From Clavelina lepadiformis (lineage: Eukaryota; Chordata; Ascidiacea; Aplousobranchia; Clavelinidae), in NCBI RefSeq assembly GCF_947623445.1, contig NC_135243.1:22576479-22640478 (forward strand): DNA of 64,000 bases, read 5' to 3'. A model generated the notes under the pieces. That model searched no databases. It was not told the origin of the DNA and saw only the letters and a program-made list of their open reading frames with translations. Shown here one piece after another: positions 1,867 to 63,243 of this stretch (positions are counted from its first letter, which is position 1; every line of letters starts with the position of its first letter). The translations under genes and the position numbers were made by a program.

Positions 1867-4250
1867 CTGGAAGTTTGTTCTCGTCATTTAATCCAATATC
1901 TTTTTCAATACACAGAATATCACAGATTTCTTTTGCCATAGTTCTCATATTCCTGAAAATACCGGCAAAGTTATTACTTGCCAAACCCAAAATTTTCAAC
2001 TTCAATGTAGCCTTAAATTCAGTAGTAAACAATTTATATTTTAATTCGATTTATTTTATATGTATGTTGTTCGGCATCGTTAAATTTTCAAATTTTTTGT
2101 TTGTTGATGCATAAAATTTTTTGCAATTATTTCAACAACAAAAACGTGACATTTTTTGTCAAACTTAAGCTCTTACTCGACAGGATCTTTTATGCTGATG
2201 GTTTTTAAAATTTTTAATAATTCATCTTGTTCGCTTATTTTCCCTTTGTTTTCTTCTGAGCCGCTAATATTGCCAACAATCTGCAATGAAACCTCTCTAT
2301 AACTTCCTTTTTCTGCATTGAAAAAAAAAGAAGTTAAACATACATTTTCCGACCGATAACTGAAGCCAAATAAAACCAGTCAGCTGAAATATACTATAAA
2401 CAACTTTATAACATAATTCTTCATACTTTCAGACAACAATTTACGCCATAGTTTAATGAACATATCATGGAGCATATTTGTAGGCTATTCAATAGGTCGT
2501 AGATTTTTGCCTTGCAAAAAATGGTAAATCGCACCTGATTTTAAAAGAGATGTGATAAATTTCATTGATTCTGAAACATCAAGGATTGTCCTTGCATTTT
2601 CCGTACAGCGAGCGAGTCTAGCCAAACCCTCACACATTTCAAAAACCGAAATAAAGCTTTTTTCCAGTTGGATATACTTTTCTTTATTGACGATACATTT
2701 GCTTATAACCTTCATAGAATTGAATCAAAATTAAAAAAACTGTGTTGAAAAATACTGTATTATAACAATAATTTACCTTGAAAGAACGTTTTTTAATCAA
2801 AGAATTTTTTATTCAACTTACACTAGTTATATAGCCAATTAGAGATTGATGGACTTTCAGCAGAGGAATCTGTTCTTTCTCTGTCACCAGAGACAGCAAA
2901 AAGGCGGAAAAGGTTAAAATTGACTTTCTTTTTAAGTCCCGTGTGAAGTAAATTAATATACTTTTTTAAAACAGCGCAATTAATACAAATGCTATCTGCG
3001 ATGAGATAACTTACAAATAATTCACATTTACAATGAGCACCAAAGTTTGGTAATAAAACTCGAAGTAATAAGTAGGACCAAATAAAATTAACTCTATTGC
3101 CAGCAAATAACATTTATTTTGTTCTTTCGGTGCTTTTAAGTAAGCGTTGTATAAAAATATGAGTTTTACCGTTTCTTTGTCCATTTCTTTTCTAAATGGA
3201 GACATTATTTCAAAGATATTCAGCACTTTCACATGCATCAGACATTCTGGTGTTTTTGCAGAGTTGAACAAAATTTCTATACACGTCTGTTCCACGAGTT
3301 CTTTCTCCTATACTCGTATACAACATACCGTACATAAGCAAAAAGTTAAACACTACATTCTTCTTCACTCAACACTACATTTTCTCCAAATAGTAACTTT
3401 ACATGATGCTAAATAAGACACCTTAATTATTCTGGTATTAAATTAAATCGGCAGGCGGGCAGGCACGTTATTAGTTGCTATTTATATTACCTCTGTTTCA
3501 AGCCCAGAACAACTTTGTACGTGGCGTAAATGAACAACCATCAGTGTTATCAAACCTTCTTTTCCACATTGTACGCAAAATGCAGGACTAAACTGGGAGA
3601 GGCTTCTAATTGTTTGTTTGAAATATTCCAAAAGGGCACACTTATTGCTATAGAAACAAAAGAAACGTTTACATTATAATGCTGGATTTAATCAACAAAG
3701 TTGTCAGTTAATTTATTCTTTGTCATACTTTTAATTTTGATGTCATACTAAAAATACAATTTCATAAAAACTGTCTATTCACGTAGAACTATCTATGTCG
3801 ACAACATAAATCTACTGTAGTTAAACTTTGTGTCAGACAACGACATAAAAGCATCTCCAGGCTATTGAATAACTAAGGCGTTGTGAAACCTGTCTGTTGG
3901 GTAAACATTTCCATCCTCAATTAATAGCTTGAAATACTTATGGAAGAGTGAAGGAGCATTGCATCGTAACACCTCATCAGCAACTTTATTCCGAAGTAAC
4001 TGTAAAAGATTTCGAAAATTTGACCAAGTGGCTAGATGTAATGAGATAAATATTCTGTTACTTAGCACCAGAATTGTAAAACATAATATCAAACAATGAC
4101 TTAGAGAAACCTTTGAGATGTTTGGGGTTACAAGTCTACATAGGTTCCCCAGCTTGGTTCCTACAGTTTCTATGACTTCATTGTTCCATTTGTTTTCCAA
4201 TAAACCACAACCTCTTAAATATTCAAAGCAGTCTGGAACAAATTCTTTTG
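1867..4250 (-). other. K1 ARM-like module, exons A-H
   Basis: Exons: A 4111-4250, B 3890-3999, C 3491-3647, D 3170-3307, E 2822-2938, F 2535-2709, G 2177-2312, H 1867-1952. Each aligns with the same-numbered exon of K2, K5 and K6: A carries CFEYLRGCGLLENKW, B LFHKYFKLLIEDG, C AFCVQCGKEGL, D EILFNSAKTPECL, E SLIGYITS, F MCEGLARLARCTENA, H NMRTMAKEICDIL. The pattern of short amphipathic helices with Leu/Ala/Cys/Asn repeats suggests an ARM/HEAT-type solenoid; I cannot name a family. Exon E would start after CACACGG instead of CAG. The exon G donor is GA|GTAAGA, and an alternative reading stops at TAA there. Confidence 0.72.
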
Positions 4251-7200
4251 CTTTTAAGAAAATTTTAGAAGACTTTTCCCAGTTATACATATTCATATAA
4301 TGAAATACATTTGTAATAAACTGTTTTTATTTCATTAATTGCAATGCGTATTAATTGCATTCTTATTGTTTTCCTAAAATTGTTTTTAGTATTATACTAG
4401 TATTCGATATTGCTAATTATTTCTAAATATAGATATACCTAATATACCTAATACCTAATATACCTTTCACGTTTGTGATCGAGTCATTTTTTGACGACAG
4501 AGCTGGGCTATCTTTTCTTTGACCTAGGTAGAACAAGGATAGAATACAAACATTACGGTTTGCTGCAATGTTTGCCATGCGTAAGCTTCGACGTACAATA
4601 CTTGGTTTACACAAAATGTTTCTAAAAGAAACTTCTGAACACACTACTATTTTCTATTGGGATATGAAGCAATATTCATGTCATTTGCAAAAATGCCATG
4701 CATACAGTATATACGATAATTTTACTTTAATGTATAATTAATACAATTTATTTTACAGAACTTTTGGTCAGTTTCAGAAATGTACTTTTGTAGAAATCTC
4801 TTCTTTGAAATAGAAACAATAATATTCTAATAACTAATGTTAAAGTCATCGAAACTAAAATTAGGTGTGTTAATTTGTATCTTTATTTATTATTTGAGAA
4901 TTTGTGATTCAACAAACCACAACTGTTCAAACTTGTTGTTGTTAATTGCAGCATGCTTGTACTAATAATACAGTTAATAGGAACACAAGTACAGTGTGGC
5001 CACAGTTTAACGCATTATAAAATTATAACATTGTCAACATTATAATGATAGTGCAACTTTATACGTAGTGTGAGACAAAGAACTTTAAACTTAAGATCAA
5101 CTGTGTGTTCACAACAGGTAAATGATTACTTGTCTGTCGGGCGTTCAACTCCAGTTTGTCTTCAGGAAATTCGCTACTGCGTGACATACATTCCCTATCG
5201 TTCGATGATTTTTTGTCCGAAGAAGCATTTTCTAAAACAAATAATTTGTTGATTTAATTTGCAAAATTAAAGTAAATTTTTATTTTCAATTTGATTTACA
5301 ATAATTAAAATTAGCAGTACATTCTACTTTTGATATTTTCCTCAACACATATATTTAAAATGCATTTCGAAAATGAAAACGTTTTTAATTAACATAATGT
5401 TGTAGAGTTTATATTGTCATATAGCGCAAGTTTCCAATATTTGGAGTCTCTTGAAATTTCTTAGCGCTCATAAAAGTCAAAATTAAAAAAACAAACTTTA
5501 AATTTTCATTTACTTCTGTGTGTCAGCATTCGCTCGTCCTTGGCAAATCCTAAAATAATGTTGCGTTTGTGTGTTTAATAAACGTTTGTTTTATACCTTG
5601 CTCATGCAATACCTGGAGCAGAATTTTCTTTAATTTCTTCGCTTTGACAGCTGTCACCGTGAAGCTCTGGTGGTACTACATTAGTATCTGGGAAACCTAA
5701 TATAAATGTTTTAAATAAATCTTTACCAGAACAGACTCCTTTTTATTGACAGTACAGATGCACTACACAAAATATTCTATGACATAAGTAACCATATATG
5801 TATGTTTACATATGCTAACTGAAACAAAATGAAAAGTGTGTGTATATATTTAAATAAATACTTTTTTGAGCATCTAGATCATATGTTTGTGCTGATTTTT
5901 GGGCAACATTTTAACCTTTTGCCCTTTTTACTTAGATTTGCTTATATAAGTTACACACCGTCATATGTATACATAGTATGACACATGTATGCTTACAACG
6001 ACTATAAATGCTTCACATTTTTATACTCAAATACTTTTCAGATATAGATAACCGAACTAAGAAACGTATGAAATTTCTGTTATATATTTAGTTATCTTTC
6101 AACACAAGGCATTACATTACATATCAAACAATACAATTAAATAAACAGCTGTTGTCGACGTTGCAATTTTTCTATTGCCTAATGTGGATATTTTCTATTG
6201 CTCATGTAAAAAAACATCGGAGACGTGGTTTGTAGTTAAACACTTCGATTAATTTCATGAGATAAACGTTAACTTGTATTCCATTTTGTTATCTATCAAT
6301 ATTTGGTTGGGGCAACCCTAGACAAGGAAACATTCGTAAATTATAATTTAAATTATTCTTAAGTTATTTTAGGTTATTATTGATTCTGTGTGACACAATA
6401 ACATACATACCTTCTGCAGATTTTTCGTCTTGTTCTGCGGGTGATGGATTGGCTGGAGTACACGTCTTGTCCAAACTTGGTTAAAGAAAACTATGTTTGA
6501 TATTTTCATTTGTTTCTGTACCAGAGTGAAATGAAGTATATAACAAAACAAAGTTTTACAACAAAATTTGGTTTCAAATTTACTCTCGATTGAAGTGCCT
6601 GTGTTTGCTGTCAATGAAGAACTTCTTTTCAAAGTTGCGTCGTTTTCAATGGTTGAGTGGATTGCTGATAAGGATTCTGCAAACATAGCGTTACTATAGT
6701 ACGTCAAAGATTACGATGTTACAAAAATTCTTCAAGGACTTGTGTAAAAAATGGAAATAATAGCCAGTAAATAAAAAGAAGCGTATTGACTTTTACTGAA
6801 TGAGTATATAAAAGTTTAATACTAAGCTAATCTTTTGCGTAGCCACAATTGAGATACAAGTACATAATGCTTCGCTTAAAATACCGTTTTGACTGAAGTC
6901 TGGTGGACGAAAATGATTGACCGTAACACATCCTTCTTTAAAAACAGCCTTCTTGCAAATTGTTATCCCTTCCAGTGCTTCGTTAACTTGTTTTCGAATG
7001 AGTTGGAAGTCATGGTCAGCTAATTTACTGTACAAGCTCTCTTTCACATCAATCATAGTTGGTCGATCTGCAGGATCATGTTGCCAGCATCGGGTCATTT
7101 GTTCTTTCAGAAAGCGGATTATATCAGCAAAACTAACAAGCCCTTCTACTTCCAATTTCTTTAAATATTCCTGAATTCTTTCTTCACTCGGTTGTTGACC

Positions 7201-8266
7201 TTCCATAATTCTCTCAGTAAAAGTTTGCACTGGTGTCCCTGTGTCAAGTGGCATTTCTCTCGCTAAAATCATATGCAAGGTCATTCCATAGCTGTACGTG
7301 TTATGTTTGGGAGACACTTTTATGTTGATATTGCGTAATCGCTCAGGAGCAGAGTATAGTTTGGTCAGTTGAATAGAGTTTGAATCTTTGTAACCGGTTA
7401 ATGTTGTACAACCAGTATAATTGGACAACTGTGCAGTACCAAAGTCTCCAATCTTACAATGCAAATCTTCGGTCAGGAGAATGTTTTCTGGTTTTATATC
7501 TCCATGCAACAGTCGTTTGTCATCAAAAAGATTGTGGATGAAAGCAAGTCCGTTGGCAATCTCTGCACCAAATCTAGCTCTGAGTAAAGGACCCAAGATG
7601 ATGTCTTCATCCATAAGAATTGCTTTCAGATTGCCAGCAGGAAGAAACTCCATGATAATTGCTACTGCACCAGGCCAGTGTGTCCAACCGTAAACACGAA
7701 CTATGTTTTCGTGGTTGGCTTGCTGGAGGTGGTCAATTTCTTTTTTAATTCTATCGGGTTACACGAAAGATATTAATTGTTAAGATTCTATAACATTAAG
7801 TTTGAACTTTGTCCTAACGAGAGCCAAATGATGTCAAACTGACCTCTTCTCCAACAATTTTTTCTCCTGCTTTCCTCTCTTCATTTCGGAGCATTTTATT
7901 GCAATTTCTCCTAGACGTTTATGATATCCAAGACGAACTTTTCCGTACGATCCTTCCCCGAGATCTCCTTCATCATCATCAGTAAGGCAAAATATTTCAT
8001 CGCATTTAAACAGCTTGATCTATAGAAAAAGAACTTGCTGTATTAGTCATAAAATGTTAAGTAAAGATTTCGTCTAATAACCACAATTTTTTTCTGCAGC
8101 AACTTTCTGTAAACTTGGCAACAATTTGGTAAATTTTCGAAATTTTTATCTTAGTTGTCAGGCTTATGCTTAATCTTTGTATGACTTTAAGCTATAATCT
8201 TAATTTTCAAAGTAATTAAGAAGAATATAAAAGTTCTTTGTTTAGTTTTACCTGGGTTTGAGTCAT
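1867..8266 (-). CDS. K1: non-RD protein kinase with ARM-like repeat module (may continue left)
   Basis: Predicted intracellular Ser/Thr (TKL/RIPK-IRAK-like) kinase joined to a helical-repeat tail. Exons read on the minus strand: 8252-8266 (MTQTQ), 7844-8019, 6885-7750, linkers 6584-6676, 5613-5687 and 4464-4523, then module exons from 4250 to 1867. The N-lobe exon shows the glycine loop GEGSYGKV and the ATP-binding Lys in IAIKCSE. The long exon shows LLHGDIKPENIL (catalytic Asp, but Gly instead of the HRD Arg), GDFGTAQ, SAPERL and the αI motif CWQHDPADRPT. The usual αF Asp is Asn here (NTYSYGM). A further linker-like exon near 6411-6475 does not fit the phase and is left unresolved. The last exon ends in phase 1, so the protein may continue. 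Module exon E lacks a normal AG acceptor. Family assignment is by motif recognition; activity is inferred. Confidence 0.8.
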
Positions 8267-14148: not shown

Positions 14149-17100
14149 CTGAAAAGGAAAAATTTGAACGTTTTTCCACGGTAATTAAAAATACTGCGAT
14201 GATATAGTTTTTACCATTAACCTTGCGCTTTTCAAAGATTCTTAATTAAAATATATCAATTGTTAAGAAGTCAGTGAAACCTGATTTTGTTGAAACGTGA
14301 GTTGTTTGTTTGTCATTTTATTTTTCGAATATATTCTTTTAAAGTTAAGTTTTAAACTAAAATTATCTTGATGCACATCCTAGAATGACGAATCCTAAAG
14401 AACCGAATCTCAAAAGATTCGAATAAAATTTTCGTATTTTTTCCGAATCTAAGCAATCGTTTTTTTATGATTGAAAATTTTCATTGGCACGTTCAGGAGA
14501 TACTGGTGCCGATTTTTTATTTTTTATATTCCAATACTATTCGCTTAGTGCGTTAATCTTTCATGAATTAAATCGTGTGTCATTTCAATTGTTAACTTGT
14601 TTGAACCATAATAATTTTTTTGGACTATTGCAAAGAAAATACAGGTGCTTAATTTTGTCCACTTTTATGTTATTCTAGAATAGGATCCGAAATTCTTGAT
14701 CCGGAATAAATTATCTTAAGTAATTCTAGAATGGTCAATTATTCTGTTTTGTACGTCCTTATTGAAAGATCAACATTTATAATCAATCAATCTCCCGCAT
14801 GACAACATAAAACCACAGAAAATCACAAACTTGCTCTACAGAAAGCAATATAGAAGGCAGGGACCTTAAGTAAGGTTTGATGAAAAATTTCATTTTGTAA
14901 CTTTGTTTTGTCATGAAGCTTGTCACCTCAAATCAGAAAGTGTATATAAATTAGGCAGCTCAAAACTTAATTTGAATTTATTTTACCTTTTTCGTCGTTT
15001 ACTTCTTTTGTTGACAGCACTCTCTGCAATGTTACTTCTGAAAAAAACGCGTTAAACTTAAGACCCTGGAAGTTTTTTGTAGAAAATTAGCATCGTTTTT
15101 TTCTCCGTATAAAATATGTAACTTTACCAGAAATATTTTTTAGCAACTTTTAGCTTAAGCTTGTGAATTACGTTTTGCATAAAAACAATGTTTCAATACT
15201 GGTAAAGCAGTATTTATCAAATTTAAAGCTATTATATTACAAAATAACTGAGTATAGACATTAAAGCTTGACAAAATTTTTAAAGTTTTATTTACATGTT
15301 TACATATTTGAATAACTTTCTTGGAATAAAAGGAAGACTTACTTGGTTTATATGGTTAATATTTATAATTTAGTGCTATTTTTTTAGTGCGCAGGACTAT
15401 TGTATTGAGGTTGTATAAAACTTATTTCTAAATGTGACTGAGCAAAACATTTACTCTGCAAATAACTATAATATAACTAGTATATGAGCCCAAACGCTGG
15501 ATACAAAGAATTTTTGAGGTACATGATATGAAAAATTAAGAAGGAAAAGAAACCAACTCTATCATTCAAATTAGTATCAAATAAATAGAAAAGTCACAAA
15601 TACATAATCAACTGTATGTGAGATAAACTTGGGCTAAAACAATACAAATAATTGTAAAGTTTTTACCCCTTCTTTCATCTTTACTTTTTGAAGACACTAT
15701 TTCTGTAGCTGAAATGAGTTGATAAATTTTGCTGGATATTTCTTTCAGGTTTCTGTGAACGAAATACATTTGTTAATCTTACATCGTCTCACTAAATTAG
15801 ATTACTGTGTGGTTTCTGATTTAAATAAATTTGGTTTCGTTAAAGTGATCAGTGTTGGTCAAAGAATTCCGATAAACTATTTTGCTTTTGTAATGTCTAT
15901 TTACTGACTTAATAAGAAAATGCAGTATTGTAGCAGTTAGGACAACGTAAACATATTTTCAATCGTAGTGAGATGTAAAAAAAACAAATATGAAATGAGT
16001 GCGTGTTTCTTTGCGTTACTAAGTCAAGAGGTTTTCATAGAATTAATTGATCAACTTAACCCTATTCTAACTAGGCTTGGCTTCTCCCGCACACTGTCAT
16101 AGCAAAACGTGGCGTACAGTTGCATTGTTTGCTGTAGAAACTTGAAATTTCGTGACTTTTCCTAAAAAATGTTCAGCTATCTGTCCATGTTTGTTTGATA
16201 AAGTTGGATTTTGTAATTTTTAAGATATTGCGATATTTTCATAATTTTCCTCTGCTTTGCTCTGCTCTCCGCATTGAAGCGTATTACTCATTTACGCACC
16301 ACTAACTCGACTAACTATTCTCTTTCGTTCTCTTCTCGCGGTCAGCTGGTTTTCCGCACAGCGGGGGCGCGACGTAACAAGAAGAATTTCTAGAAATGTG
16401 TCACTTTTAGAAATACTTAATTTACACTAAATTCACTTTCTTTAGTTTTACATTTATGATGTATACAGGAAGCCAGATGATTTTTCTACAAACCTGTAAA
16501 AATCCGATCAGTTTACGACGTATAGTTTTCTAGTAATTAACGATTGAAAATGTGTGTGCGGGGTCGGCCATACCTAGTTTTTTAGTAAATTCGCGAGCCT
16601 GGTTAGGATAGGGTTAAGTAGAAAATTGCAAAAAATTAAATCTAATATGAAATTTAAATGTAGTAAGAAATAGATGTAAGTATACTGTAATACAGTTCTT
16701 GTATTTTGGTATAATAATTTGAAGTTATATCTTACTTATCGTGATCTTGTTTCTGAGACTTTCGCAAGAAATCCATTATTTTTGTTGCTTTGTTGATTTG
16801 TTCTCTGTTTTCTTTCGGCAAGCACAGGTGGTACAATAATTTCAACGAAGACTTGTTTTCTGTAACTGATGCGTGTGAATGAATAAATGCACTAGGAAAA
16901 GTTATTATTTCGCATTTAAAAAAAAATAAAATCCAGAAAACATTTTGACTTACATAAAATATATATGGTTGATAAAAAAAGCCTAATTATTATAAAGTAA
17001 TATATATACATTCTTCTGAAATACTTAAAAAAGAAGATAAAAAAGGTAAAAAAATATTGCACCATTTTAAACAACCTGAATTTAGCATCGACGTTACACA

Positions 17101-20100
17101 TTTAATTGATTCAGATGCATTAAGTATGGTTCTTGCATTTTCTTTGTTGCGAGAAAGTTGAAGTAAGCCATCACAGATTTCGTTAATCGAAAATACGATT
17201 CCACTATCAAACTCAATATGTTGATTACCATGAAGACCTTTATTGATAGCCTGAAAGTAGTTGATTTTGTAAAATTTATAGTATAATATAATTTTATTAC
17301 GTTAAGAAAAGCCTTAATTTTAAAAAGTTTAAAAAAATCAAATTTGTCAGTGGGCTATACAGTCTTTAGTATACTTTAAGCTGTCACGACTCATGTGTTT
17401 GATCAAATATTAACTTTTTATAACTTACCTCGACAATGTAATTTATTAGAGACTGGTGGACTGCAAACAAATGCATTTGGTGATCTTCAGCCAGATAAGC
17501 CAGTAACAAAGCAAAAAAGGTTAAAAATTCCATTCGTTCCCTTGTCTGTGCAAACATAATTTATCAAACACAAACTTTTTCGTAACAATTTTATTAAATT
17601 TCCAAGCTTTCCATTGTTGTAAAAAAATATGTGTGTACGTACAATTTGAAACATTGCTTTTTCTAAGTGGTTTAAATAAGCTGATTTTAGTTTTCTTAAA
17701 ATACCGATCGTGTGTTTTCAAACAAATGAATTAAAAATGTTTTTTTGTTTTGTTCTGTTTTTATTCTCGTTAGCTGTGTTCTGGAAAAATTATACCTACA
17801 GAAAAACTGTACCATTTTGCAAAATAAATTTGTTCACACAAGATAAGCATCAATAACTTTTAAGAATCAAAAATTGGTAATTGTCTATTTTTTTGAATCA
17901 TGTTGTTACAATTCATATTCAATTTGCAAAACACATAGTAGATACAGTAAAAAGAGCAAAACAAATGGTTGCTCTAGTCTATAGTATACTATAACTTTAG
18001 CAGAGTGCATAGGTTAAACAAAGCTATAGATCTGTATTGTACAACTTACATTTTTTACAAGTTAACTGCAAAGTTAAGCCTTGCTTAGGTTTTGCACTAT
18101 TAACGCATTTCAAAAAATTTATTAAGATATTTGTTAAGGCTTATACCTCGTGCCGCTAAGGTATTAAAACTAGAAATTAGGAGAACATAAAACGGATTTT
18201 TACACTCAAGTATATTCAAGTTTTTTTCTGAGTTAACATTCTGCTATTCTGCTTAATACAACGATGTACCATTTTTGTCACCATTTCTTTTCTGAATTGG
18301 GATGGTATGTTTGCAATACTCAAGATTTGTGTGTGCTTTAAACACCACAATCTTCTTGAACAGTTATACAAAATGCCCAAGCAGCTTCTCGAGGCGTTTT
18401 CCTTTGTCTGTTAGAAACAAAAATAACAAAATAATGTTTTTTAACATCACAAAAATAGCGTGGATCTGTCGAAAGGTGTGTTGTTGCAACAAAAAACTCT
18501 TTCAAAATTGCATTACGTAAAGTGAGCAGTTAAACCTTTGTTGTCAGCCATGTCACACCCTGGATATAACGAAAGTGAACAGCCATCAATGCGATCAAGC
18601 CGCTCTTGCAAGATTCAACGCAAAATGCATCACTGGCATCAGAAAGATTCCAAATAATTCTTTTAAAATGATCCAAGAAAAGACATTTTACGCTTAAAAC
18701 AAAAAACAAAAAAAAACTAGTTTAGTACATTGTCAATGTGCAAATAACTCATGGAAAAGTTATTGCACAGATTTAGGTTGTTATAGTAAAGTATTTGTAA
18801 TACCACCAATACGTTGATACTTTTAAGGTTACCTAATGGTTATTCGAATCAGTTAATCTTAACATTTTTGCAAAACCATGCAACCTCCATCAACAGCGTA
18901 AAACGTAACGTGTTAGTCATGCAACAAAACAAAAAGCTGAAAATGAATAACCTGTCCTTTGGATAGACATATCCATCATTGATCAAAATCTTCAAATGTT
19001 GAAGAAACAACGAGATTGCATTTTGATGTAAAACTTCATCGGCAATTTCTTGCCGGAACAGCTTTCAAAAGATTTCGACTTAAATTAAATTAATTAAATT
19101 CGAATTACAAATTAAACGTTAGTTGTGTCAATTTTTTAGGATGATAAGACCTCTGCTACTGCATTACTTATTTGTAGCAAAATTAAATCAAACATACAAA
19201 CGTAAGACAAGCAATACCTTGGAATAACAAAGGCTCGTATAAGTACTTAATTGTTTCAATTTTAATTTTGCATTATTCACCACTTCCGTACTCCATACTG
19301 TCTCCAGCAAACCACAACGACTTAAATAGTCAAGAGAAGTTTTAACATCAGCTTTCACTTTTAAAACAATAAAAAATTATTGAACAGTTATTTGTTCAAC
19401 GTTTAAGTTGGTAAATGCTAATATTTAACGGTTTTAACACATTCTTTAAAATCTAATGGTTTTGCAAAACGACAATTAGTAAGCTTAAAGCAGCTACTGT
19501 GTATCTTTTTTACTACCTTCATCAACAGTAAAGACGTAATGGGACGACGTTGTTGAACTATTTGATTTATCATCAGCTGCAACCATTTATAAATCTTTAT
19601 CTGTTTTCTACCTTTTAATTTGATAATAAAAAGTTGTTCATAAATATGAGAAAAAAATCAAATCTGCAGCAGTTTTATGTTTTGCAAGGAAATCAGTTCA
19701 AAATACAAGATTAACTCAATATAAGAACAATCTATATAAGTCTCATGTTCCAATTATAAGCACACTAGCTATGTTAACTCAGCTGCTACCATTTTTGTGG
19801 CTTTGATCCAGCCAAACAAAAATTCAATTAGATTGATATATTTTCGCCTTAAAACACTATACAAGCAATATTATAACAGATATTAAATGGAGTTTTCTAC
19901 AATATAAGTGAATGTCACCTGGTGTCGAATCGGATGGATTTGGTTGCTCATGCGGTCCTGTTGTTGAGGGTTCCAACACTAAAAGTAATGGGGTTAAAGA
20001 TCTAAATAGAAAAAAAACAAAGCTCTTTTTTTACGTTTAATGAAGAAAACATTGAACAATTTTTTCTTGTAACCTAATGACCCTTTTTATATTTTTGTAG

Positions 20101-23100
20101 TTTTTCAAATTTTTTCCATCATCTTTCAGTTTTAATATTTCAAAAATTCACCACCATTGTTTAGAATTATGCCAAATTTGTCGGAATAATCTTTTAAAAT
20201 TTTAACGTTACAGACCTGTAGTATCTGCTTTAGAATTGTCTCCAAGTTTTACCCGATAATAATTGGAGCCATAACAAATTTGATGGTTTTTTTGGGAATC
20301 TACATGTAATAAATGTAGCAAAATAATTAACTTTATAAAATCTTAGAATACAAAACATGTACAGATTTCTTATAAAATTTAAATGACTGACTCATGCATA
20401 TATGCTGTTTGAAGCTAAATGTTGCTGATTCTTGGAAATGTGACCATGGGTCCGACAATCCCAGGATATGTGTGAGCGTAACATGGGATCTTTAATGGCC
20501 ACGGTGATTTTTAGAAAATTTATTAAAAAAAAAGACAGATCATTTCATTTCAAACACAAATAAGGTTTTTTAAAGAAGTATGAACAGCAAAACATTTTAC
20601 ACTTCTTATGTGATTTGCATTTGCAGTAATTTTGCTGTAAAGCTTAATAACGGGAATGTGTTACCTTGATTAACTATTACAAATTATTTTTGGACACTTT
20701 TAATCAGTGGTTCGAATGCTTCAAATTTTTAAATTTTAAAAAATTTGCAGCTAAAAAAACATTGGAAACTATTTTTGTTAGGTAACATCGCCATTTTCCT
20801 GGTTTATCTTTTTTACTACTCAAACAATATATGTACCGTAGTGTCATAAAATGCTACCAAAGGTAAAAAGCCAACTGCAAAATATGCAGCTTTATCGGCA
20901 TAATCCTTATTTTTAGGTTTTACTTTCAAAAGAAACTCCTTCAGTCGGTTCTTTTTCTTCTTTCGCTGAAGCTGATGGTGTTACTTCTATACTTGCATTG
21001 TTTTGGGTGGTTGGAATCAATGACATTAAAACATGTTCTATAAACATTGTGCATTCAATGAATCCAATATTAGTCAAGTTAAGAACATAATGTTGGCCCT
21101 CTACAGATACTATATTAAGTTTCACCTGATGTCAAATTGGATGGACCTGGTGGAAAGTGTGGTGATGAAGTTAAAGAACCAAATTCTGAAAAAATATGAT
21201 TAAAAAATCAACCGTACTTTGAGAAAAGATACAAGTCTTGCTCTTGTTCAAAAAATCTGGGCAAATTTTGATATGTGACGTTCAACACAATAACTTTTTT
21301 AAACACATTTTTTACGGTAAATACAATTCAATTATTCTAAAAAATGAGTCAATTTTTCAGTTTTATTGCTGCTTAAATCATTGAGGATTACGCAGTACCT
21401 GCTGTAGAATTTCCATTAGGCTCTACATGTTGAACTGACCGGGCAATCCTCTGATATGTCTCTGAGAAATCTAAATTCAATTTAGAGAACGAAACATATT
21501 TTCATTTCTAATGCAAGGGAGCAAAAGTTTTTATTTATTCAAGATTATCAGTTGCAGTAACTTACTTTATGTATTCACCTAAATATGTTGAGCATGAATT
21601 CCATGCGGGACACACATTTGCTAATTTATGAGTGCTAGTTTCCCAAATTAGAATAAAAGAAAAACCTAGTATAGGAAAAAAATCATACTTATTTTACCAT
21701 TCAAATCGAAGTCAGGTGGACGGAATTCGCTGACAAAAACATATTTTTCTCTGTCCAAAGATGAAAGGCGAACGTCCACGTTTCTAAGCGCTTCACCAAC
21801 TTGTTCATGAACAGCCTGGATGCTGTAGTTCCCCAGAATACTGTACAGATCGTTCTTTATTTTCATCATAAAAGGCCGATCAGCAGGGTCTTGTTGCCAA
21901 CAAGAGATCATTTCCTCTTTAAGAAAACGAAGCACATCAGCATCACCATCTGGAAATGTTTCCTCTTGCTCCCGTATCTGTTCTTCGATGCTTTCTAGAC
22001 TTGGTCGTTGGCCTTCAATAATTTTCTCAATGAATGTTTCTGGTGGTACACTCGCGTCAAGTAGCGGTTCTCTTGTCAAAATCATATGCAAGGTCATTCC
22101 ATAACTATACGTGTCATGCTTTGGAGTCAACCTTGTGCCAATACTTCGCAATCGTTCAGGAGCAGAGTATAATTTGGTCAGTTGAATAGAATTTAAATCT
22201 CTGTAACTGGTTGATGTGGTAGAGCCAGTATAACTGGACAGCTGTGCCGCGCCAAAGTCTCCAATCTTGCAATGTAAATCCTCGGTCATGAGAATGTTTT
22301 CTGGTTTTATATCTCCATGCAACAGTCGTTTGTCATCAAAGAGATTATGGATGAAAGCAAGTCCGTTGGCAATCTCTGCACCAAATCTCGCTCTAAGCAG
22401 AGGACCCAAGACGACGTCTTCATCCAAAAGAACTGCTTTCAGATTACCAGCAGGAAGATATTCCATGATAATTGCAATTGCTCCAGACCATTGCGTCCAT
22501 CCGTAAACACGAACTATGTTTTCGTGGTTGGCTTGCTGGAGGTGACCAATTTGTTTCTTAATTCTGTAAATACATACTGTAGTTATAACATTTTTATGCA
22601 GGTCCAAAAAAATAAAAAACAATGAGTGCTTTTGCAGTTTTCTTAAGTTTACGTATCATTTTAATTTACTTGAAACCATGAAATTTGGCAGAAATCAGTT
22701 GTAATTAATGTTTTTTTTTTCGGTAATTTATTTTTGTTTTTTTGCACAAAAAGTTTTCTCTTTTTTCAGACAAATTCTGCTTCAAGTTTGGGCCGATTAA
22801 CATTGTATTGATATATTAGTACGTATAGCAAACAATTTGCAACAACATGACTGGCAAGCTTGTTACGCATCATTTGCTCTCGAATCGTACCATTGATGTC
22901 ATAGCTACGTAAAAAGAATTATTACAATTAATATTTTTTCTCATTTGAAAAAAATCTACGTTAAGCCGTGAATAATCATAATAGATTGCAATTTGCTTTA
23001 ACGTTTTGAGAAAAGCTACAAAAGAATATTCAAAACAAACTTTTTTTAGGCAAACTAAATCGACACCTACTGAAACGCACAGTAGCTGTAGCACAGCAAC

Positions 23101-23876
23101 ACCTAGCTGCATACGAACCACACATACACGGTCTGTTGATATAACAGCGATTTTTCTCTTCGAAGTCAGTAAACGCAAAAAAAACGCAAAATATGTTGAC
23201 GCAAAGGCACATCAATTTTGAACAAACCTTCAGGCCTATACATATAAGCACGTACGCAATTACATTTTAAATCTGCTAAACCAATAATGTTAACAAACAC
23301 ACCAATAAACAAAAAGAAAATTCAAAACTTACTTCTTTTCCAGTAAATTTTTTTCCCTCGCTCCACCTTTCATTTCAGAACATTTCACAGCAATTGCTCC
23401 AAACTTTTCATGAAATCCGAGACGAACCTTTCCGTATGATCCTGCTCCGAGGTTGCCTTCATCATCATCATTGGCAAGGCAAAGGATTTCATCAGCTCTG
23501 AATAATTTAATCTAAAACAAAAAGTCAATTTTAAGGTTTCAGTTCTAACAATGCACTCATCAAGAAAAAATAGTCTATTTTATTCCACATTTGCTTATAT
23601 TTTGCTGTTTTGATGATGTAGGACAATAGTCCTATATACTAATTTATACGTCGTTTATACTTCATTACATAAATTATACTTTATTTAAAATCATTTTGAA
23701 ATAAAATGCATTACGAAACGTAATTCGGGTATGCATTACTTAACTTTAAGATTACTATTAATTCCGACTGCGACTTATCAAAGATTTTTCCAAATAAACT
23801 TTATTATGAATACCTAGTTTGTTTGTTAAATATAATCTAACCTATTTTCAAATAAAAAACATTAACTTACCTCCAT
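11850..23876 (-). CDS. K2: non-RD kinase with two tandem ARM-like modules
   Basis: Largest gene in the window, about 1,200 residues by my exon sum. Exons on the minus strand: 23871-23876 (Met-Glu), 23333-23511, 21698-22563 (kinase), six linkers (21399-21470, 21126-21185, 20924-21037, 20216-20299, 19919-19978, 19517-19576), module 1 (15667-19357), a linker 14987-15037, and module 2 (11850-14148). The kinase shows GAGSYGKV, IAVKCSEMK, HGDIKPENIL, GDFGAAQ, SAPERL, DTYSYGM and DPADRPF: complete catalytic residues with a non-RD loop. The linker exons are all multiples of three in phase 1 and rich in Ser/Thr/Pro/Asp/Glu. The start exon differs from the MTxTQ of its relatives; the ATG-GAG-gtaagt reading is plausible but the weakest part. 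The end is either TGA at 11850-11852, read straight through from exon G, or an unseen exon H after the strong GTGAGT donor. Confidence 0.82.
15667..19357 (-). other. K2 ARM-like module 1, exons A-H
   Basis: Exons: A 19218-19357 (DYLSRCGLLETVW), B 18952-19061 (QEIADEVLHQNAISLF), C 18536-18692 (AFCVESCKSGLIALM), D 18270-18407 (ILYNCSRRLWCLKH), E 17429-17545 (AVHQSLINYIVE), F 17076-17250 (INEICDGLLQLSRNKENA), G 16736-16859 (LYHLCLPKENREQI), H 15667-15752 (NLKEISSKIYQLI). All frames stay open. Exon G is four codons shorter than in the other modules. Exon H ends in phase 1 and passes into a 51-base linker and then a second exon A, which is the direct evidence that the module is duplicated inside one gene. 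A TIR element (16055-16618) sits in the intron between G and H. Confidence 0.78.
16055..16618. mobile_element. MITE-like element with 23-bp terminal inverted repeats
   Basis: The left end reads CTTAACCCTATTCTAACTAGG and continues CT; the right end is its inverted copy with two mismatches in 23 bases (16596-16618). The 564-bp body has no coding potential. A partial copy lies inverted at about 889-1394. I could not fix a target-site duplication. The element lies inside a K2 intron between module-1 exons G and H. Confidence 0.75.
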
Positions 23877-26284: not shown

Positions 26285-26672
26285 TCAAGTCGTGCAAAAT
26301 TTCACAGCAATGTGTTTATACTTTTGATGAATTCCGAGACGAACTTTTCCGTATGATCCCTCACCGAGGTTTTCATCATTCTCATCAACAATGCAAAAGA
26401 TTTCATCGCATCTATAAAACTTAATCTGTCGAAAAGATTTCACCGTTAACTACATATAGAAAAATGTTTTGCCGTTTGGTGGCATTTTTGAAATAAGCAC
26501 ACGTTCTACTCGTGGTAGTCGTTCTAAGTTCACACAAGTTAACGACGACATACATAACTTAAAACTGTTTCAAATAAGTTATAAGATTTCGAAAAGCATA
26601 CATATAACATAGATGTTTTAAATTAATCAGTGTTTTTAACAATTTTTGCCTTACCTGCTGTGCTTCATTCAT
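26285..26672 (-). pseudogene. K3: truncated kinase remnant (exons 1 and 2 only)
   Basis: The first exon at 26655-26672 reads MNEAQQ followed by gtaagg. The second exon starts at 26425 after CGACAG and reads IKFYRCDEIFCI, a glycine loop GEGSYGKVRLG and IAVKF. It then departs from the family sequence where other copies have CSEMKGG and meets TGA at 26285-26287. No kinase C-lobe, linker or module follows before the K2 promoter region. The copy therefore lost everything after the ATP-binding Lys, or was duplicated only as promoter plus two exons. Confidence 0.75.
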
Positions 26673-42170: not shown

Positions 42171-42276
42171 TATGACAACGTATGACTTATGACGTATGAT
42201 ATTTACAAGTTAATTGTAATAAAAATAATGCAGCCGATTCTGCAAGCAATCAAGCAATTACATTTAAAAACGTTCC

Positions 42277-50883: not shown

Positions 50884-50889
50884 GATGAC

Positions 50890-55893: not shown

Positions 55894-58800
55894 ATGACTG
55901 AAACTCAGGTAAGAGCAAACTATTTTTAAACAATTTGGTTTAAACAATGTTAAAATTTTACAACTTTATAAAATAGCTTGGAAATGTGTATTTCTTGCAT
56001 CATTAGAAACTTGATCAGACTTATATCGATTAGAAAATCTGCCATTACTTTAGGAAATCAGTCCAGCAGCCAAAAGTTTACATTTTGAAATTTAGGCGGT
56101 TGAGGCTCTCACATACAGATCAAGATCAAGTACCTATATAGATCAATAGATCGTATCTATTTGATTTGATCTATAAATCAAATATAGAACATTTGTGCTT
56201 ACTTCAGATAAACAGCAAAGCATTTACAACACATTACACTTTGCAGATTACGCGATTGAACTTTGTTACATGCAGATCAAGCTTTATAGATGCGATGAAA
56301 TCTTTTGCATTGCTGATGACGAGGAGGGAAACCTCGGAGAGGGATCATACGGAAGAGTTCGTCTCGGATTTCATCAAAATTATGGTGCAATTGCTGTAAA
56401 GTGTTCCGAGATGAAAGGTGGAAAGAGGGAGAGGATTTTGCTAGAAAAAAGGTAAAAGGTATTTAATGAAACTTGCTAAGTTTATAGACGAAAATGTCTA
56501 CGATTAGAAATACTCATAAAAAAAACTTGTTTTTTGTGTAATCAATAAAATATAACAGGATCAAAAAAGAAATTGGCCACCTCCAGCAAGCCAACCACGA
56601 AAACATAGTTCGTGTTTACGGATGGACGCATTGGTCTGGAGCAATTGCAATTATCATGGAATATCTTCCTGCTGGAAATCTGAAAGCAATTCTTCTGGAT
56701 GAAGACGTCGTCTTAGGTCCTCTACTTAGAGCGAGATTTGCTGAAGAGATTGCCAACGGACTTGCTTTCATCCATAATCTCTTTGATGACAAACGACTGT
56801 TGCATGGAGATATAAAACCAGAAAACATTCTCATGACCGAAGATTTGCATTGTAAGATTGGAGACTTTGGTGCTGCACAGTTGTCCAATTATACTGGGTC
56901 TACAACAACAGCTGGTTACAAAGATTTAAAATCTGTTCAGTTGACAAAACTGTACGCTGCTCCTGAACGTTTGCAGAATATTAGCATGAAGCTGACACCC
57001 AAATGCGACACTTACAGTTTTGGAATGACTTTGCACATGATTTTAGCGAGAGAACCTCCGATTGATTTTGGGATACCAGTGCAGACCTTTATTGATAGGA
57101 TCATTGAGGGCCAACGACCAAGTCTAGAAAGTATCCAAACCTACATAAGGGAGCTGGAAGCAAAAGGACAAAGCGATGATGCAGCAATGATTCAATTTCT
57201 GAAAGAGGAAATGATCCGATGCTGGGAAAAAAATTCTGCTGATCGACTGACCATGACAGAAGTTAATGAGCATTTGCAGAGTCAACTGCGAAATCGTGAT
57301 CTTAACGTCTTCCATAAGTTAGTCTACGATGCTTCAAAGACTCTGTGTCTGAAAAAGCCATCTTTCGTCCAAGATGAAAATCTTCCTATTAGTCGGTTTT
57401 GTCCACCAAGATTTTTAGTTGACGGTAATTTGATTCGTCAAAGCGAAAATTAGATGAAGTAAAATCCATATAGGAATAAAATAATAAGCATGTTACAAAC
57501 GTTATTGTCAATGTTGTCCGTCGAAGTAGGTTACCACTTTTATTTCTGTTGACTTTTTAAGCACCTGGAATGTCCTCAACCAAAAATGCAATTTCGATCA
57601 ACTATTCTACTTTCGTATCAGAAATAACTGATTCGTCAGGAGGTAAGAAGGTATATATATTTCATTTTAATATTTTGATTAAGCAAATTTAAGTATCTAG
57701 ATTGTAGACATTACGTGTCATTGATGGCATGCGTACATAGGGTTATTTTTGTGGTACTACTACAAGATTCATTTTGCAGAGTCACATCGCAACCAATCTA
57801 GATCCAGCAAATCACTTGATCAAATTTATGAATCAGCTTCTGCTGAAGGTATATTGTGCACAAAGCACGTGTATTTACTCAAAATCATCTTTTGTCCGCG
57901 GGTTCATAATGTACATCCCCCAAACTAAAGTTTTTGCCTGCCACTATTTTTGCCTGTCGACTGCAATATAATCTTTCGATGAAGTTTGCAATATAAAGCT
58001 AATTGTCTTAAATGTGGTCAAAGTTTTATTTCTTTTACAAGCATACCGAATATGCCAGTGGCGACCAAAAATCAGGCAAACCGTATTTTTGTGCAAGCTT
58101 TGGGTACTTTACCAAACGATTCTGGCATGAATGAAAAAATACTAGGTATATCAGTAACTCGGTAATACAATATACCGTAGTACCACTGTACTGCCCACCT
58201 CTTGTTGTTTCTTAAATCCACAAGGTTTCTTGACGGTTTATTTTACACTAAATATCCTTTTATGTTCATTGAGTTTGTGAATTGAACGTAGTTAAGTTCT
58301 AATATATATGATGTAAAAGAAAGAAATAGTCTACCCTTTTTGTTCATTTTTATAAATTGCAATTTTAAGACCATAAATTATATTTCATATATTTTTAAAT
58401 AATTTAATTAATTAATAATTAATAGTTTAATTATAATTTATGTCTTATGTTTATAAATAAATTATAATTAGTACACTTAAAATTATATATGTAATATGTA
58501 ATTATAATAATATAGTTTATAAATTTTAAAATATACATAAGTTTTATAAAAAGAGAATATACTATCATTATTTATTATTGAAAAAAGTGTTTACGGAAAA
58601 CCAATAATGTTTTGTCTTCTTACAGATTTACAGATTTGATTTACTTACAGATTTGATTTACTTACAGATTTGATTTACTTACAGATTTGATTTACTTACA
58701 GATTTGATTTACTTACAGATTTGATTTACTTACAGATTTGATTTGCTTACAGATGTAATTTGAGGAAAATTATACGAAAACTCATAAAGCAAACTTTGAA

Positions 58801-61800
58801 TTTTTACTATCTGTGTTTTTTAACAAAACTTACCGCAAATACATAAAAATAACTATAAAGACATAAAAACACAGAGAATTTAGAATAACTAAATACGTAA
58901 AACTTCTCGTAATTTTTATATATTTCTACAACAAATTTTACAATTTAATAGTAACGTAACAAGATAGAGTACATGGCCTTTGTTTTTTCCTCAAATTTCT
59001 TTTTAAATTTCTTCTCTATAGCTTTGGAACCTTCAATGGAGTTGATTGATGCTGAACCTGAAATTAAAGACACCATAACTGGTAGAACATAAAAGTTAAA
59101 ATATCTTAACGCCTAGATATGAATCTATAATCATATTAAATTATTTAAGGTTTCGCCTTGTTTGTCATGAAATATTGCGGTTATAGATTATAGCAAACTT
59201 CACTAAAATGTTTATTATGAGTTCTACTGATAACGCCAATAACAAACTGTCCATGGCTTATTAGCAGACTTGTTATTGCAATTGAATTCATTTATATTTT
59301 TCTCGTCAAGTGTCTCCTACTAGTTTTCAGTCATCTCATGCAAATACGTCAACCAACAACCAAATTATAACAGGTAATCAGAATGACTCTATAACTTTGT
59401 ATTTTGTTTGTATTTCAAATATTCGACAGATTCGAAACCAATTCGAGTTCGCAGTCAAGTCCTGCTTTGAAAATTGTAATCCGAATCAGTTCAAGCCGTT
59501 TGGCAAATGAGGTGCCAGTTAAGACTAAAGCCAAGTCACAGAAATAGAAAAACACATCTTTTTTCAACAAAATCAAACGAAATTTCGAACGTTTAAAAAT
59601 TTGCTTGTTTTGCTTCGCACGCGTTCGTATAGATAAAAATATTTTTAAATTACACTTTAATGTGATTTGACTAAAAAATGAGAAATTCACTTCAGAAATG
59701 CAGGAAGCCAATCGAGTTAAATCAATAGTCATTGTGTGTTTTCAAGAGACTTAAATCGAGTCAAGTTTTTTGCAAAAATTGCCCTAAGTCAAGTTACTGA
59801 CACGATTCATTACGAATCTGAGTTACGATATTTAACTGAAAAACAATATTATCCCTAAATTAATACAGTTTCAATTTTCATTTTTTTGTATGAAGAGGAA
59901 ACTATTTTAAATAGGAACATCGGCAAATCTCGGAAAATTGCATTTGGGAGAAAGGTTCGAGCAAGATGAGGAAACTTTCTCTTTGTCACAAAAAGGTGAT
60001 AAACAGCATTGAAATGACTTTCAATTTGTTTTTTTTTTCAATTGTCTTTTATTCTTTGGTTAAATAACAATTTTTAAACAACGTTATAGTTAATTTATCC
60101 TATTAATTATTGCTGGACGTATAGAGCAGTATAACTATGTATATCAGATTGTTTTATTAACCTTTTTCAAAATGTGTACTATATACATTATACATATAGC
60201 TTTGCAAGTTTTCCAGGGCATGTGTAAATATTCTTCAGAAAAAGCAAGGTACGACGATGACATACAATACAGAACTTCTGTATATTAGTCATGTATAACA
60301 CATCAACTTGGGTCATAGGTTTCCTTTATGAAAACAACTTTACGTGCCTTTTAAATACACTTACTGTCATTGCTTTATTAAGTTTTTAGGCAAGCGCTTA
60401 TTTTTGTTTTGTTGAAAGAAAAATCTGATCTTGAAGAGTGCCTTAAGTATTTAAAAACTTGTGGTTTACTGGACAACACGTGGAACGAAGAAGTGGTGGA
60501 AGTCGCCAAAGAAAAGCTACAAATCATGAATGAGTTCTTTGATCCGAGATATCAATCCAAGGTTTTAAAATTAAATAATTTTCTGTCAACTATGCTGTAG
60601 TAAACTTATTAGAAACTTTTACATGTCCTTAAGCAAATTTGTTTCATGCATCTTGGTTTTCTTGTTATAATGTCCAGCAAAAAATGTCGATTGTTAATAA
60701 TATATAAAGAACATTGCGCTATACGTTACAGCAAGTTTCAGTATACAATAAATACCGAATGTGCATATATACTGAATACATATTGATATGGATAGATGTA
60801 TTAATATGTCATCTACTGGACCTTGTCCTTGCGTTCGCCAACTAGAAACGTCGGAAAGGAATTCACATTCTTTAGGTTTTCACAAAAATTTAAAGCATAT
60901 TTTTCGATTGCATTACAGTTGTTTAAAAAAAACATTGTCCTTGGAATGTTGCGTCAGGATGCGATAACACTGTTTCTTCAGTATTTGAAGTTGCTGATCG
61001 TTGATGGAAAGGTGTATCCGAGAGAAAGGTTGTGACAATCATAATAATTTTTGGATGATTTGAAATTTCATGTCTATTTTACAGAACCGAGCGAAAAACC
61101 GTATATAGCTGCTAGTAATATCATACCCTATCAGTATATTTAAAATATGCTAATTACTATAAAGAGTTATTATTAGAAATTACAGCAACGGAAAAAATTA
61201 ATCCCAGCTGAGTTTTATTATTGTTTCTTAGCATTTTTTGGACAATTCTGGAAAACATTAAATTACTTATCGGGAAAATCGCTTACTGTAGTGTTGACTT
61301 TTGCGTGGAATGTGGTAAATAAGGATCGGTTTTGTTAATGGTGACTCATTTACAATATGTCCAAGATTGTCTTTGAATTGAAACAGAGGTATAGTGTAGA
61401 AACTCCTCTATGTGCTTGTAATGGTTTGTGATACAGCACTTTTAGCACAAGAAATGTTTTTATTGTAAAATTTATAATTTACTACAATACAGCTAGGCGG
61501 TTCCATTGTGTCTTGCCCTTAGGCATTTTTGGGAGCACATAAGCTCTTTCAAATGTTATACTTTGTAACACATAAACTTATTACCGCAAACAAAACGATT
61601 TTTTAGTTCTTTAATTCCGTTTGTTCGCAAACATTAGATTAAACAATGGTCGGAAGATCTTTGTGTGGTTTTTTTGCTCAACTGTGCAAAAAATCGAGAG
61701 TCTTTGGCCTATGTAAGAGATACGGAAATTATTCAAATAATGGCCACCTACAAAAACCAAATGATTGGAGAACCCGTAAGTAAACCCGCTATATTAAATT

Positions 61801-63243
61801 TTAACTGCAATTTTCTGCTTTGTAAATACAATATACACATATGCATATATGTTTTATTACGGAAGTAATCAAGGAAACTTTAAATATGCATATTTTTGTT
61901 CTTAATTTATAAACTGCGTATTTTTTGTTAAATATTTAAAATTCAAAAGAAAATTTAAAAATTATAAACTGCGCATTTTAAAAGACTAAAGTGTTCAAAC
62001 ATGTTGCATAGTTTGAAAATGTTTACAGTTGTAACTTTTATTGATAGAACCTAAAAAATAACATTGAAATTTAATTGCACAATTCGAAAACGACTCGAAA
62101 ATGAATAGTTTTTTGTGTATATGGAATCCTGCTGACTGCATTTATATAATCTTAACTTTGTTATAAGAATACTAAAGGTTTATCATTCATTTACTTTAGA
62201 ACCCTGACAGAATAGAATTCCTATCATATTACGCGTTCTTACTGGCGTACATTGTGGATGAGTTTCAATTGCACATGCTAGAAGTCCACCGAAATCTTAT
62301 CTCATACCTTGTTAAGGTTTGCATAAAAAACCATAAAACCTTTATAACGTGCATAAGCTTAAACCTGTTTGTGAATTGTTACTTTTATAAATAAGAATTA
62401 TCATTTGCATATTTTTTATTACTATTTTTTATGAATATTTATTAATTTATTTTCATATTTATTTTAACCTTTTTTGTTCTTTTCAATTATTTTTTACACA
62501 ATCCAGTGCATAAATGAAGCTCTTGAAGATAAAAATCACTACTGTGCCCACGAACTTGCGTCATTGTCGGAATTGTGTGATGGTTTGGCTCAACTTGCGC
62601 GATACTGGGACACTTCGGCAGCCATTTTAAAAATTCCCAAATCTGTAAAACACGTCACTTCTGTTTTAGAGTCAGGTGCAATAGACACAAGGTGGATAAT
62701 TCAAATAATCTTTACGTTGTCACATTCTGATAATATTTGATTTCTTTTGCAGATGATGAAATTGAGAGAAAAGCCGCTTTGCATCTCATCCACAGATTGT
62801 GTCAGTCGAAACAAAATAAAGAGAAAATCAAGACACACAAAAAGTTATTGGATCGTTTAGACAACATGCGACTTTCAGACCCAATCAGGTAATTTTACTT
62901 GACCTTAACTTACGATTAATCAAGCTTTGTACAAAAACAGAACACAAGAATAGCTTTGATCGATGACGCCAAGACTCATGAGTCATGACATATATCTTCA
63001 TGGCTTGTACTGGAAATTGAAATGCAGCTGCTTTAAGACATTGTTACATCATGAATGTCACATCACATCAATCATCAATCATCCATCACATCATGTTACA
63101 TCTTTAAGACATGAATTTGAATATATTAGGTTAATGAAATGTTGTCATTTTGTAGGGATTTTAGAAAAATAGCGGAGAGACTTCATCAAGACTTGATTTC
63201 TCTTCCAAAGACGTCACTTTTGGATGTATTAAAACGACAATAA
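55894..63243 (+). CDS. K6: non-RD kinase, ARM-like module broken by stops in exon C
   Basis: The only family member on the plus strand. Exons: 55894-55908 (MTETQ), 56276-56451, 56559-57424 (kinase), linkers 57562-57642, 57780-57848, 59022-59081 and 59311-59373, then the module 60419-63243. Kinase motifs: GEGSYGRV, IAVKCSEMK, HGDIKPENIL, GDFGAAQ, YAAPERL, DTYSFGM, with SADRLTM where relatives have PADRPTM. Catalytic residues are complete, so the kinase half looks functional. Exon C has the normal 157-base length and phases but carries TAA (61320-61322) and TGA (61374-61376). Exons D to H are all open, as if decay is recent or the stops are errors. Without C the frame from B to D would break (phase 2 to 0), so skipping does not rescue it. 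Confidence 0.8.
58381..58560. repeat. Extremely AT-rich low-complexity tract
   Basis: Almost pure A/T with many TAATTATAA-like inverted stretches, inside a K6 linker intron. No coding or regulatory signal is discernible. Confidence 0.6.
58621..58755 (+). repeat. 17-bp minisatellite, about 8 units (ACAGATTTGATTTACTT)
   Basis: Nearly perfect tandem units of ACAGATTTGATTTACTT; the first is truncated and the last ones vary (TTGCTT, GATGTAATTTG). It sits in the K6 intron between linker exons ending at 57848 and starting at 59022. Each unit contains TTACAG, which looks like a splice acceptor. Confidence 0.9.
60419..63243 (+). other. K6 ARM-like module, exons A-H
   Basis: Exons: A 60419-60561 (CLKYLKTCGLLDNTWNEE), B 60919-61028 (LFLQYLKLLIVDGKVYP), C 61232-61388 (DFCVECGK then stop), D 61638-61775 (VFLLNCAKNRESL), E 62200-62316 (EVHRNLISYLVK), F 62507-62675 (ELCDGLAQLARYWDTSAA), G 62753-62888 (AALHLIHRLCQSKQNKEKI), H 63156-63243 (DFRKIAERLHQDLI, ending LKRQ stop). 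Phases match K5 throughout. The terminal exon is a clean end point that confirms exon H as the last exon of a single-module gene. Confidence 0.78.

What the first reader, a model, noticed from the sequence alone, without database searches (positions are those of the whole stretch)
1867..63243. Tandem family of non-RD kinases fused to a modular ARM-like tail
Seen: five kinase genes (K1, K2, K4, K5, K6) and a remnant (K3) within 62 kb share the same exon plan, and all except K4 and K3 carry a homologous eight-exon helical module. Known: non-RD TKL kinases such as RIPK and IRAK1 act in immune and cell-death signalling, using death, CARD or RHIM regions as adaptors. Inferred: here the adaptor is an unfamiliar ARM/HEAT-like module, which would make this a lineage-specific kinase class, possibly in immunity.
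Basis: partly seen in the sequence, partly recalled or inferred. Interest (0 to 1): 0.85.

Follow-up and report, generated by a model that had tools for sequence, protein, structure and literature searches.

The report
Sea-squirt RIPK-like kinases with ARM tails
A sea squirt carries a tandem array of kinases resembling the vertebrate RIPK immune and cell-death kinases, but with a repeat-protein (ARM) tail or, it seems, a membrane-anchored thrombospondin tail in place of the usual death-signalling adaptors; an immune role is a reasonable guess that was not tested here.

Summary

Corrections: K2 has two ARM modules, and more modules follow K1 beyond the window. K6's module has two in-frame stops. 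K3 is a lone exon of a gene intact in another C. lepadiformis protein set.

All modules found lie at 22.29-23.06 Mb of one chromosome, while at least 66 loci genome-wide match the kinase. Sixteen of 20 fetched 10-kb stretches hold no ARM module; several have other tails, some TPR-like. On a kinase tree the TSP1 tail falls in two places among ARM-tailed kinases, suggesting tail exchange or gene conversion.

I judge it a new variant of RIPK-like TKL kinases in a birth-and-death array. An immune sensor or adaptor role is plausible but untested; taxonomic restriction is only weakly tested.

The parts
1862..8019 (-). K1: kinase exons E1 7844-8019 and E2 6885-7750; linker exons; ARM module M1 4111-4250, M2 3890-3999, M3 3491-3647, M4 3170-3307, M5 2822-2938 (acceptor GG), M6 2535-2709, M7 2176-2312, M8 about 1862-1951. 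The start-exon pattern found for K4, K5 and K6 has no match here
   Evidence: NCBI protein P0009 (LOC143453058) and other-set protein P0004
11571..14149 (-). K2 second ARM module (M1 14009-14148 to M8 11571-11639)
15668..23511 (-). K2: kinase E1 23333-23511, E2 21698-22563, linker exons, first ARM module M1 19218-19357 to M8 15668-15754
26300..26449 (-). K3: remnant E1 exon, 90% identical over 50 aa to P0008 (kinase, membrane helix, TSP1), whose kinase has no match above 82% among the 68 found in this genome
33405..39049 (-). K4: start exon 39035-39049, E1 38669-38844, E2 about 37650-38514 with one in-frame TGA, hydrophobic exon candidate 36488-36610, TSP1 exons 36111-36281, 35682-35861, 35269-35403, last exon 33405-33473
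   Evidence: homologues P0011 and P0008
42328..50883 (-). K5: start exon 50869-50883, E1 50443-50618, E2 49485-50350, linker exons, ARM module M1 47443-47573, M2 46873-46982, M3 46077-46233, M4 45557-45694 (absent from NCBI isoform X2), M5 44772-44888, M6 43484-43697, M7 42675-42811, M8 42328-42411
   Evidence: P0001 (LOC143453331)
55894..63243 (+). K6: start exon 55894-55908, E1 56276-56451, E2 56559-57424, linker exons, module M1 60419-60561, M2 60919-61028, M3 61232-61388 (two in-frame stops), M4 61638-61775, M5 62200-62316, M6 62507-62675, M7 62753-62888, M8 63156-63243
   Evidence: P0007 ends at the M3 stop

Best explanation
These are cytosolic, RIPK-like, non-RD TKL kinases in which one or two (in K1 perhaps three) C-terminal ARM alpha-solenoids take the place of the death, CARD, RHIM or ankyrin adaptors. 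The ARM groove binds a partner (a peptide or protein of the host, or of a microbe) and so recruits or clusters the kinase. Clustering lets the kinases phosphorylate each other and pass a signal on. Sister genes carry a membrane helix and TSP1 repeats instead, and would do the same from the cell surface. The array evolves by tandem duplication, tail exchange or gene conversion, and pseudogenisation, as arms-race receptor families do. Shown: gene anatomy, non-RD motif, RIPK-like kinase, low dN/dS, tandem array with broken and open copies. Predicted: ARM fold, membrane helix. Inferred: tail change (from the kinase tree), partner binding, clustering, catalytic activity, immune role.
For: Kinase profile closest to RIPK1, then RIPK2, RIPK4 and IRAK4. 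HGD in 23 of 23 motif-bearing family ORFs of the fetched loci and 5 of 5 in the window. ARM fold predicted for three modules in two models; that ARM grooves typically bind peptides is recalled. dN/dS 0.22-0.27 for kinases and 0.20-0.40 for modules, the latter with dS near saturation. At least 66 loci match. Tail types cluster by kinase clade except TSP1, for which one change suffices in none of 200 bootstrap trees. K3 is a remnant here but intact as P0008 in another protein set, and K4 and K6 are broken. [quoted passage not shown] only the start of its abstract seen, in the listing).
Against: No expression, ligand or infection data were available. Pfam finds no death, CARD, TIR or NACHT domain in P0001, P0005, P0006, P0007 or P0008 to tie the genes to a known immune pathway. 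ARM tails serve many non-immune scaffolding jobs, and large tandem families also serve chemosensing, reproduction and allorecognition (recalled).
Confidence: 0.42

Rival explanations
1. The same kinases act in a non-immune self/non-self, regeneration or developmental pathway of this colonial ascidian (allorecognition, budding, dormancy), with the ARM tail as a localisation scaffold.
For: ARM domains of beta-catenin, APC, p120 and Vac8 are among the nearest solved folds and are scaffolds (recalled). Variable tandem families fit allorecognition as well as immunity.
Against: The nearest solved kinases are RIPK and IRAK, used in immunity and cell death (roles recalled). I found no link to a developmental pathway, but did not search for one beyond the paper searches.
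Confidence: 0.3
2. The ARM tail is an autoinhibitory or oligomerising part of the kinase and is not an input module; signalling input comes from elsewhere.
For: In P0001 and P0005 a serine-rich linker joins kinase and tail. Linkers are under pLDDT 50 in both models, but so is most of the badly modelled kinase, so this is weak.
Against: Module number varies (one, two, perhaps three), and TSP1 replaces the module in sister genes. This fits an exchangeable input part better than a fixed cis-regulator.
Confidence: 0.15
3. The array is mostly a decaying by-product of segmental duplication with little function.
For: K3 is a remnant, K4 has a TGA in its kinase exon, K6's tail has two stops, K1's M5 acceptor is GG.
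Against: K2 and K5 are open throughout; dN/dS is well below 1 in kinase and module. Relatives of K4 and K3 without these lesions exist in another C. lepadiformis protein set.
Confidence: 0.13

Closest known systems
RIPK1/RIPK2/RIPK4 (TKL, receptor-interacting kinases)
   Same: Kinase domain is the nearest solved relative (with K5 alone RIPK1 and RIPK4 tie at 84 bits); non-RD catalytic loop (that RIPK1, 2 and 4 are non-RD is recalled); N-terminal kinase followed by linker and C-terminal adaptor
   Different: Adaptor is an ARM solenoid, or TSP1 repeats; no Pfam death, CARD or ankyrin match in P0001, P0005, P0006, P0007 or P0008; RHIM not searched by motif
IRAK family / plant RLK-Pelle kinases
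   Same: Next-nearest kinase groups (IRAK4 118 bits, BRI1 104 bits); HGD as in IRAK1 (recalled)
   Different: No N-terminal death domain; no plant-type N-terminal ectodomain
Kinases with ARM or HEAT tails such as ULK4, STK36/Fused, VPS15 (recalled)
   Same: Kinase followed by a helical repeat tail
   Different: Other kinase groups; single conserved genes instead of a tandem array (recalled)
ARM domains of beta-catenin, APC, Vac8, SmgGDS
   Different: About 9-15% identity and rmsd 4-8 A; these proteins are not kinase fusions (recalled)

Membership tests
Protein kinase superfamily, TKL/RIPK-like | Pfam kinase domain above cut-off | tested here: met
   PF00069 114.7-123.7 bits for the E2 exons of K1, K2, K5 and K6 (cut-off 31.7); 137-144 bits for P0001, P0005, P0006, P0007
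Protein kinase superfamily, TKL/RIPK-like | Catalytic lysine, HxD, DFG, APE | tested here: met
   K in VAVK/IAIK/IAVK of E1 in K1, K2, K5, K6; HGD and DFG in 5 of 5 and APE in 4 of 5 window ORFs (K4's ORF is cut by its TGA before APE)
RIPK family | Nearest relative among solved kinases | tested here: met
   RIPK1 161 bits, 30 bits above RIPK2; by profile score against solved structures, not by a tree with vertebrate RIPKs
RIPK family | Death, CARD or ankyrin adaptor domain | tested here: not met
   Pfam finds only kinase domains above cut-off in P0001, P0005, P0006 and P0007, and kinase plus TSP1 in P0008. Hence 'RIPK-like', not filed as a RIPK
RIPK family | RHIM motif | not tested
   no motif search was made
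IRAK family | N-terminal death domain | tested here: not met
   K5 and K6 proteins start MTETQ just before the kinase; no death-domain hit in the five proteins scanned
Non-RD kinases | Residue other than R before the catalytic D | tested here: met
   HGD in 28 of 28 motif-bearing family ORFs (23 in fetched loci, 5 in the window); R in 8 of 8 controls
ARM repeat domains | Alpha-solenoid fold matching solved ARM domains | tested here: met
ARM repeat domains | Sequence match to a curated ARM model above cut-off | tested here: not met
   8 modules scanned, none over any cut-off shown; nearest V-ATPase_H_N 22.5 bits (cut-off 25.7), ARM_PUB 16.4 (33) in one, ARM_ARMC5 in 4 of 8 at best E 0.017
TSP1-bearing membrane kinases (K4 type) | TSP1 repeats and a membrane helix in one gene with the kinase | tested here: inconclusive
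   P0008: three TSP1 stretches, family above cut-off and hydrophobicity 2.40 at 448-467; for K4 the helix exon is only a candidate, P0011's model lacks it, and no transcript was seen

The most novel reading that the evidence does not exclude
One chordate kinase cassette is mounted on exchangeable input parts: soluble ARM solenoids (one to three), a membrane helix with TSP1 repeats in the reverse orientation (kinase inside, C-terminal ectodomain outside), and elsewhere in the genome TPR-like and ankyrin parts. The array exchanges tails between neighbours, making an animal counterpart of the plant receptor-kinase / cytoplasmic-kinase immune repertoire.
Probability: 0.25. Interest if true: 0.82.

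Novelty: new variant of a known kind. Interest (0 to 1): 0.55.

Why it matters
Vertebrate RIPKs signal through a few fixed adaptors. A tunicate, from the sister group of vertebrates, appears to have built a large RIPK-like repertoire by changing the adaptor, with ARM solenoids and possibly TSP1 ectodomains as inputs. If these act in defence, they would show how a kinase core is rewired to new recognition parts, and would give a defined, compact array in which to watch tail exchange and gene loss between individuals.

Tried and rejected
Module named by Pfam: rejected, none of 8 modules scores over a cut-off. Module related to a solved sequence: no significant match for profile A1 (best E 0.12); only the fold comparison was informative. 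Solved ARM families absent from the fold lists are not thereby excluded.

Module shared with all kinase paralogues: not so for the loci fetched. Of 20 fetched 10-kb stretches the module HMMs ring in 4 (L009-L012, C4 22.28-23.07 Mb) and in none of the other 16. The 10-kb limit may cut off distant tails, and one of the 16 (L027) lies elsewhere on C4. Genome search with the K2b module hits only C4 (46 matches).

Search for the module in other animals: searches gave only Clavelina proteins, but also missed known Clavelina copies, so they are not evidence of absence. I had no tunicate genome other than the window's own to search.

Literature: nine searches showed no paper on these kinases. Only listings and starts of abstracts were seen, and three listings were cut (15 of 34, 12 of 32, 10 of 29). 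Four passages of PMC12373286 were read: it uses Clavelina as one of the species for orthology; the dispensable genes it describes in those passages are those of lancelets. Rfam and tRNA scans of the window were empty. NCBIfam gave only distant kinase models far under cut-off, plus one weak non-kinase row for P0001. The kinase parts of both AlphaFold models are poor (shallow alignments) and were not used.

Full report
Identity. The genome holding the window has 209 Mb in 95 contigs. NCBI proteins of Clavelina lepadiformis match the window nearly letter for letter, and the contig length given with those proteins equals that of the window's contig, 25,070,715. A genome note gives 210.1 Mb with 9 chromosomes (PMC10884593, start of abstract). 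C. lepadiformis is an aplousobranch ascidian.

Kinases. Six places hold family exons: K1, K2, K3 (one exon), K4 and K5 on the minus strand, K6 on the plus strand. The plan is a tiny start exon (MTETQ; pattern found for K4, K5 and K6 only), E1 with the glycine loop and catalytic lysine, and one large exon E2 with the rest of the kinase. They carry HGD where other kinases have HRD: 23 of 23 family ORFs in the fetched loci and 5 of 5 in the window read HGD, and 8 of 8 control kinases of the same genome read R (only ORFs of 90 aa or more that hold the motif were counted, so copies without it would be missed). A profile of six family kinases ranks RIPK1 first (161 bits), then RIPK2 131, RIPK4 120, IRAK4 118 and RIPK3 108, then BRI1 104. 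With K5's E2 alone RIPK1 and RIPK4 tie at 84 bits, and IRAK4 (60) falls behind TYK2 (70) and plant kinases. NCBI named the K6 product RIPK4-like. I file them as RIPK-like, not as RIPKs: no adaptor domain of that family was found in five proteins scanned, and no tree with vertebrate kinases was made.

Corrections to the finding. K2 carries two modules (P0005, 1186 aa). In another C. lepadiformis protein, P0004, K1 carries two; in this genome two further modules follow K1 beyond the window's low end (L009), the first matching P0004's second at 98% in M3. K6's module has two stops in M3, and NCBI's K6 protein ends there. K1's M5 acceptor is GG, and NCBI's K1 model starts inside the kinase. K4's kinase exon has an in-frame TGA, but the gene does not lack a tail: TSP1 exons at 36111-36281, 35682-35861 and 35269-35403 and a hydrophobic exon candidate at 36488-36610 follow on the same strand, as in P0011 (TSP1, no helix in the model) and P0008 (helix and TSP1). 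K3 is E1 of a P0008-like gene; P0008's best kinase match in this genome is only 82%, so an intact copy seems absent here while present in the other protein set.

Genome context. The K2b module finds matches only on C4, 22.53-23.06 Mb, and L011 adds 22.29 Mb. P0008 gives 68 matches, which I merge to 66 kinase loci, a lower bound; the two C7 loci among them are distant. Of 20 fetched 10-kb stretches, 4 in the C4 array region hold the module and 16 do not. Loci on C2, C3, C5 and C9 have two large ORFs downstream of the kinase; the four such ORFs scanned, from C2, C5 and C9, give TPR matches, all under cut-off. P0016 has N-terminal ankyrins.

Evolution. dN/dS among K1, K2, K5 and K6 is 0.22-0.27 for the kinase (6 pairs) and 0.20-0.40 among the five modules (10 pairs), with dS of 1.3-2.4 in the latter. 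This indicates purifying selection, though the module values are near saturation and do not set the broken K6 copy apart. On a tree of 29 kinases (18 labelled by tail, labels mine; TPR label partly by ORF resemblance) TPR-tailed ones form one group (98/99). ARM and TSP1 kinases form another, with TSP1 in two places: K4/P0011, and P0008 beside K6 (94/93, short of the starred level). One change suffices in none of 200 bootstrap trees, but well-supported branches alone force only one, and 56 of 500 shuffles do as well for TSP1. Tail exchange or gene conversion of the kinase exon would both explain it.

Mechanism. Shown: a kinase joined to a predicted ARM solenoid, a sister type with TSP1, and a dynamic array. 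Inferred: the tail binds a partner, clusters the kinase, and so starts signalling; defence is the likeliest setting given the RIPK-like non-RD kinase and the birth-and-death pattern. Non-immune scaffolding, cis-autoinhibition and decay are the rivals.

Limits. No other tunicate genome could be searched; the protein search scores only candidates sharing short words, and its two module queries missed known copies. No expression data were available. Gene models are mine or NCBI's.

Noticed in passing
window 27699-29813 (+): Retroelement remains (RT RNase H, integrase zinc-binding and core domains by Pfam), close to the K3 remnant exon.
   Followed up: partly
window 32346-32641, 33972-34470, 41768-42186, 51818-52309: A dispersed repeat family in both orientations, seen as homologous six-frame ORFs.
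   Followed up: no
window 1003-1508 and 16074-16530: A second repeat pair, in opposite orientation.
   Followed up: no
window 58628-58754: 17-base tandem repeat, 7.5 copies, 99% matches, between two K6 linker exons.
   Followed up: no
L019, L020, L021, L023, L024, L026 (C2, C5, C9, C3): Loci with the same non-RD kinase followed by two large ORFs; TPR matches under cut-off in the four scanned. Probably a second tail type of the family.
   Followed up: partly
L010 (gene of P0006, K7): The K7 protein starts MGNIISPCC, which looks like a myristoylation and palmitoylation signal (recalled motif); it suggests membrane anchoring of an ARM-tailed kinase.
   Followed up: no
P0018 and P0014 (unnamed ENA contigs): Relatives from elsewhere: kinase, hydrophobic stretch and Kelch repeats (P0018), and a double kinase (P0014).
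   Followed up: partly
P0002, P0003 (other C. lepadiformis protein set): Two K5-like proteins with nearly identical kinases but different modules, suggesting copy-number differences between assemblies.
   Followed up: no
L013 3174-3665 (C8): The nearest kinase outside C4 (P0013, 48% to K5) has a 164-aa C-terminal exon with no Pfam match and no match to the ARM module HMMs.
   Followed up: partly
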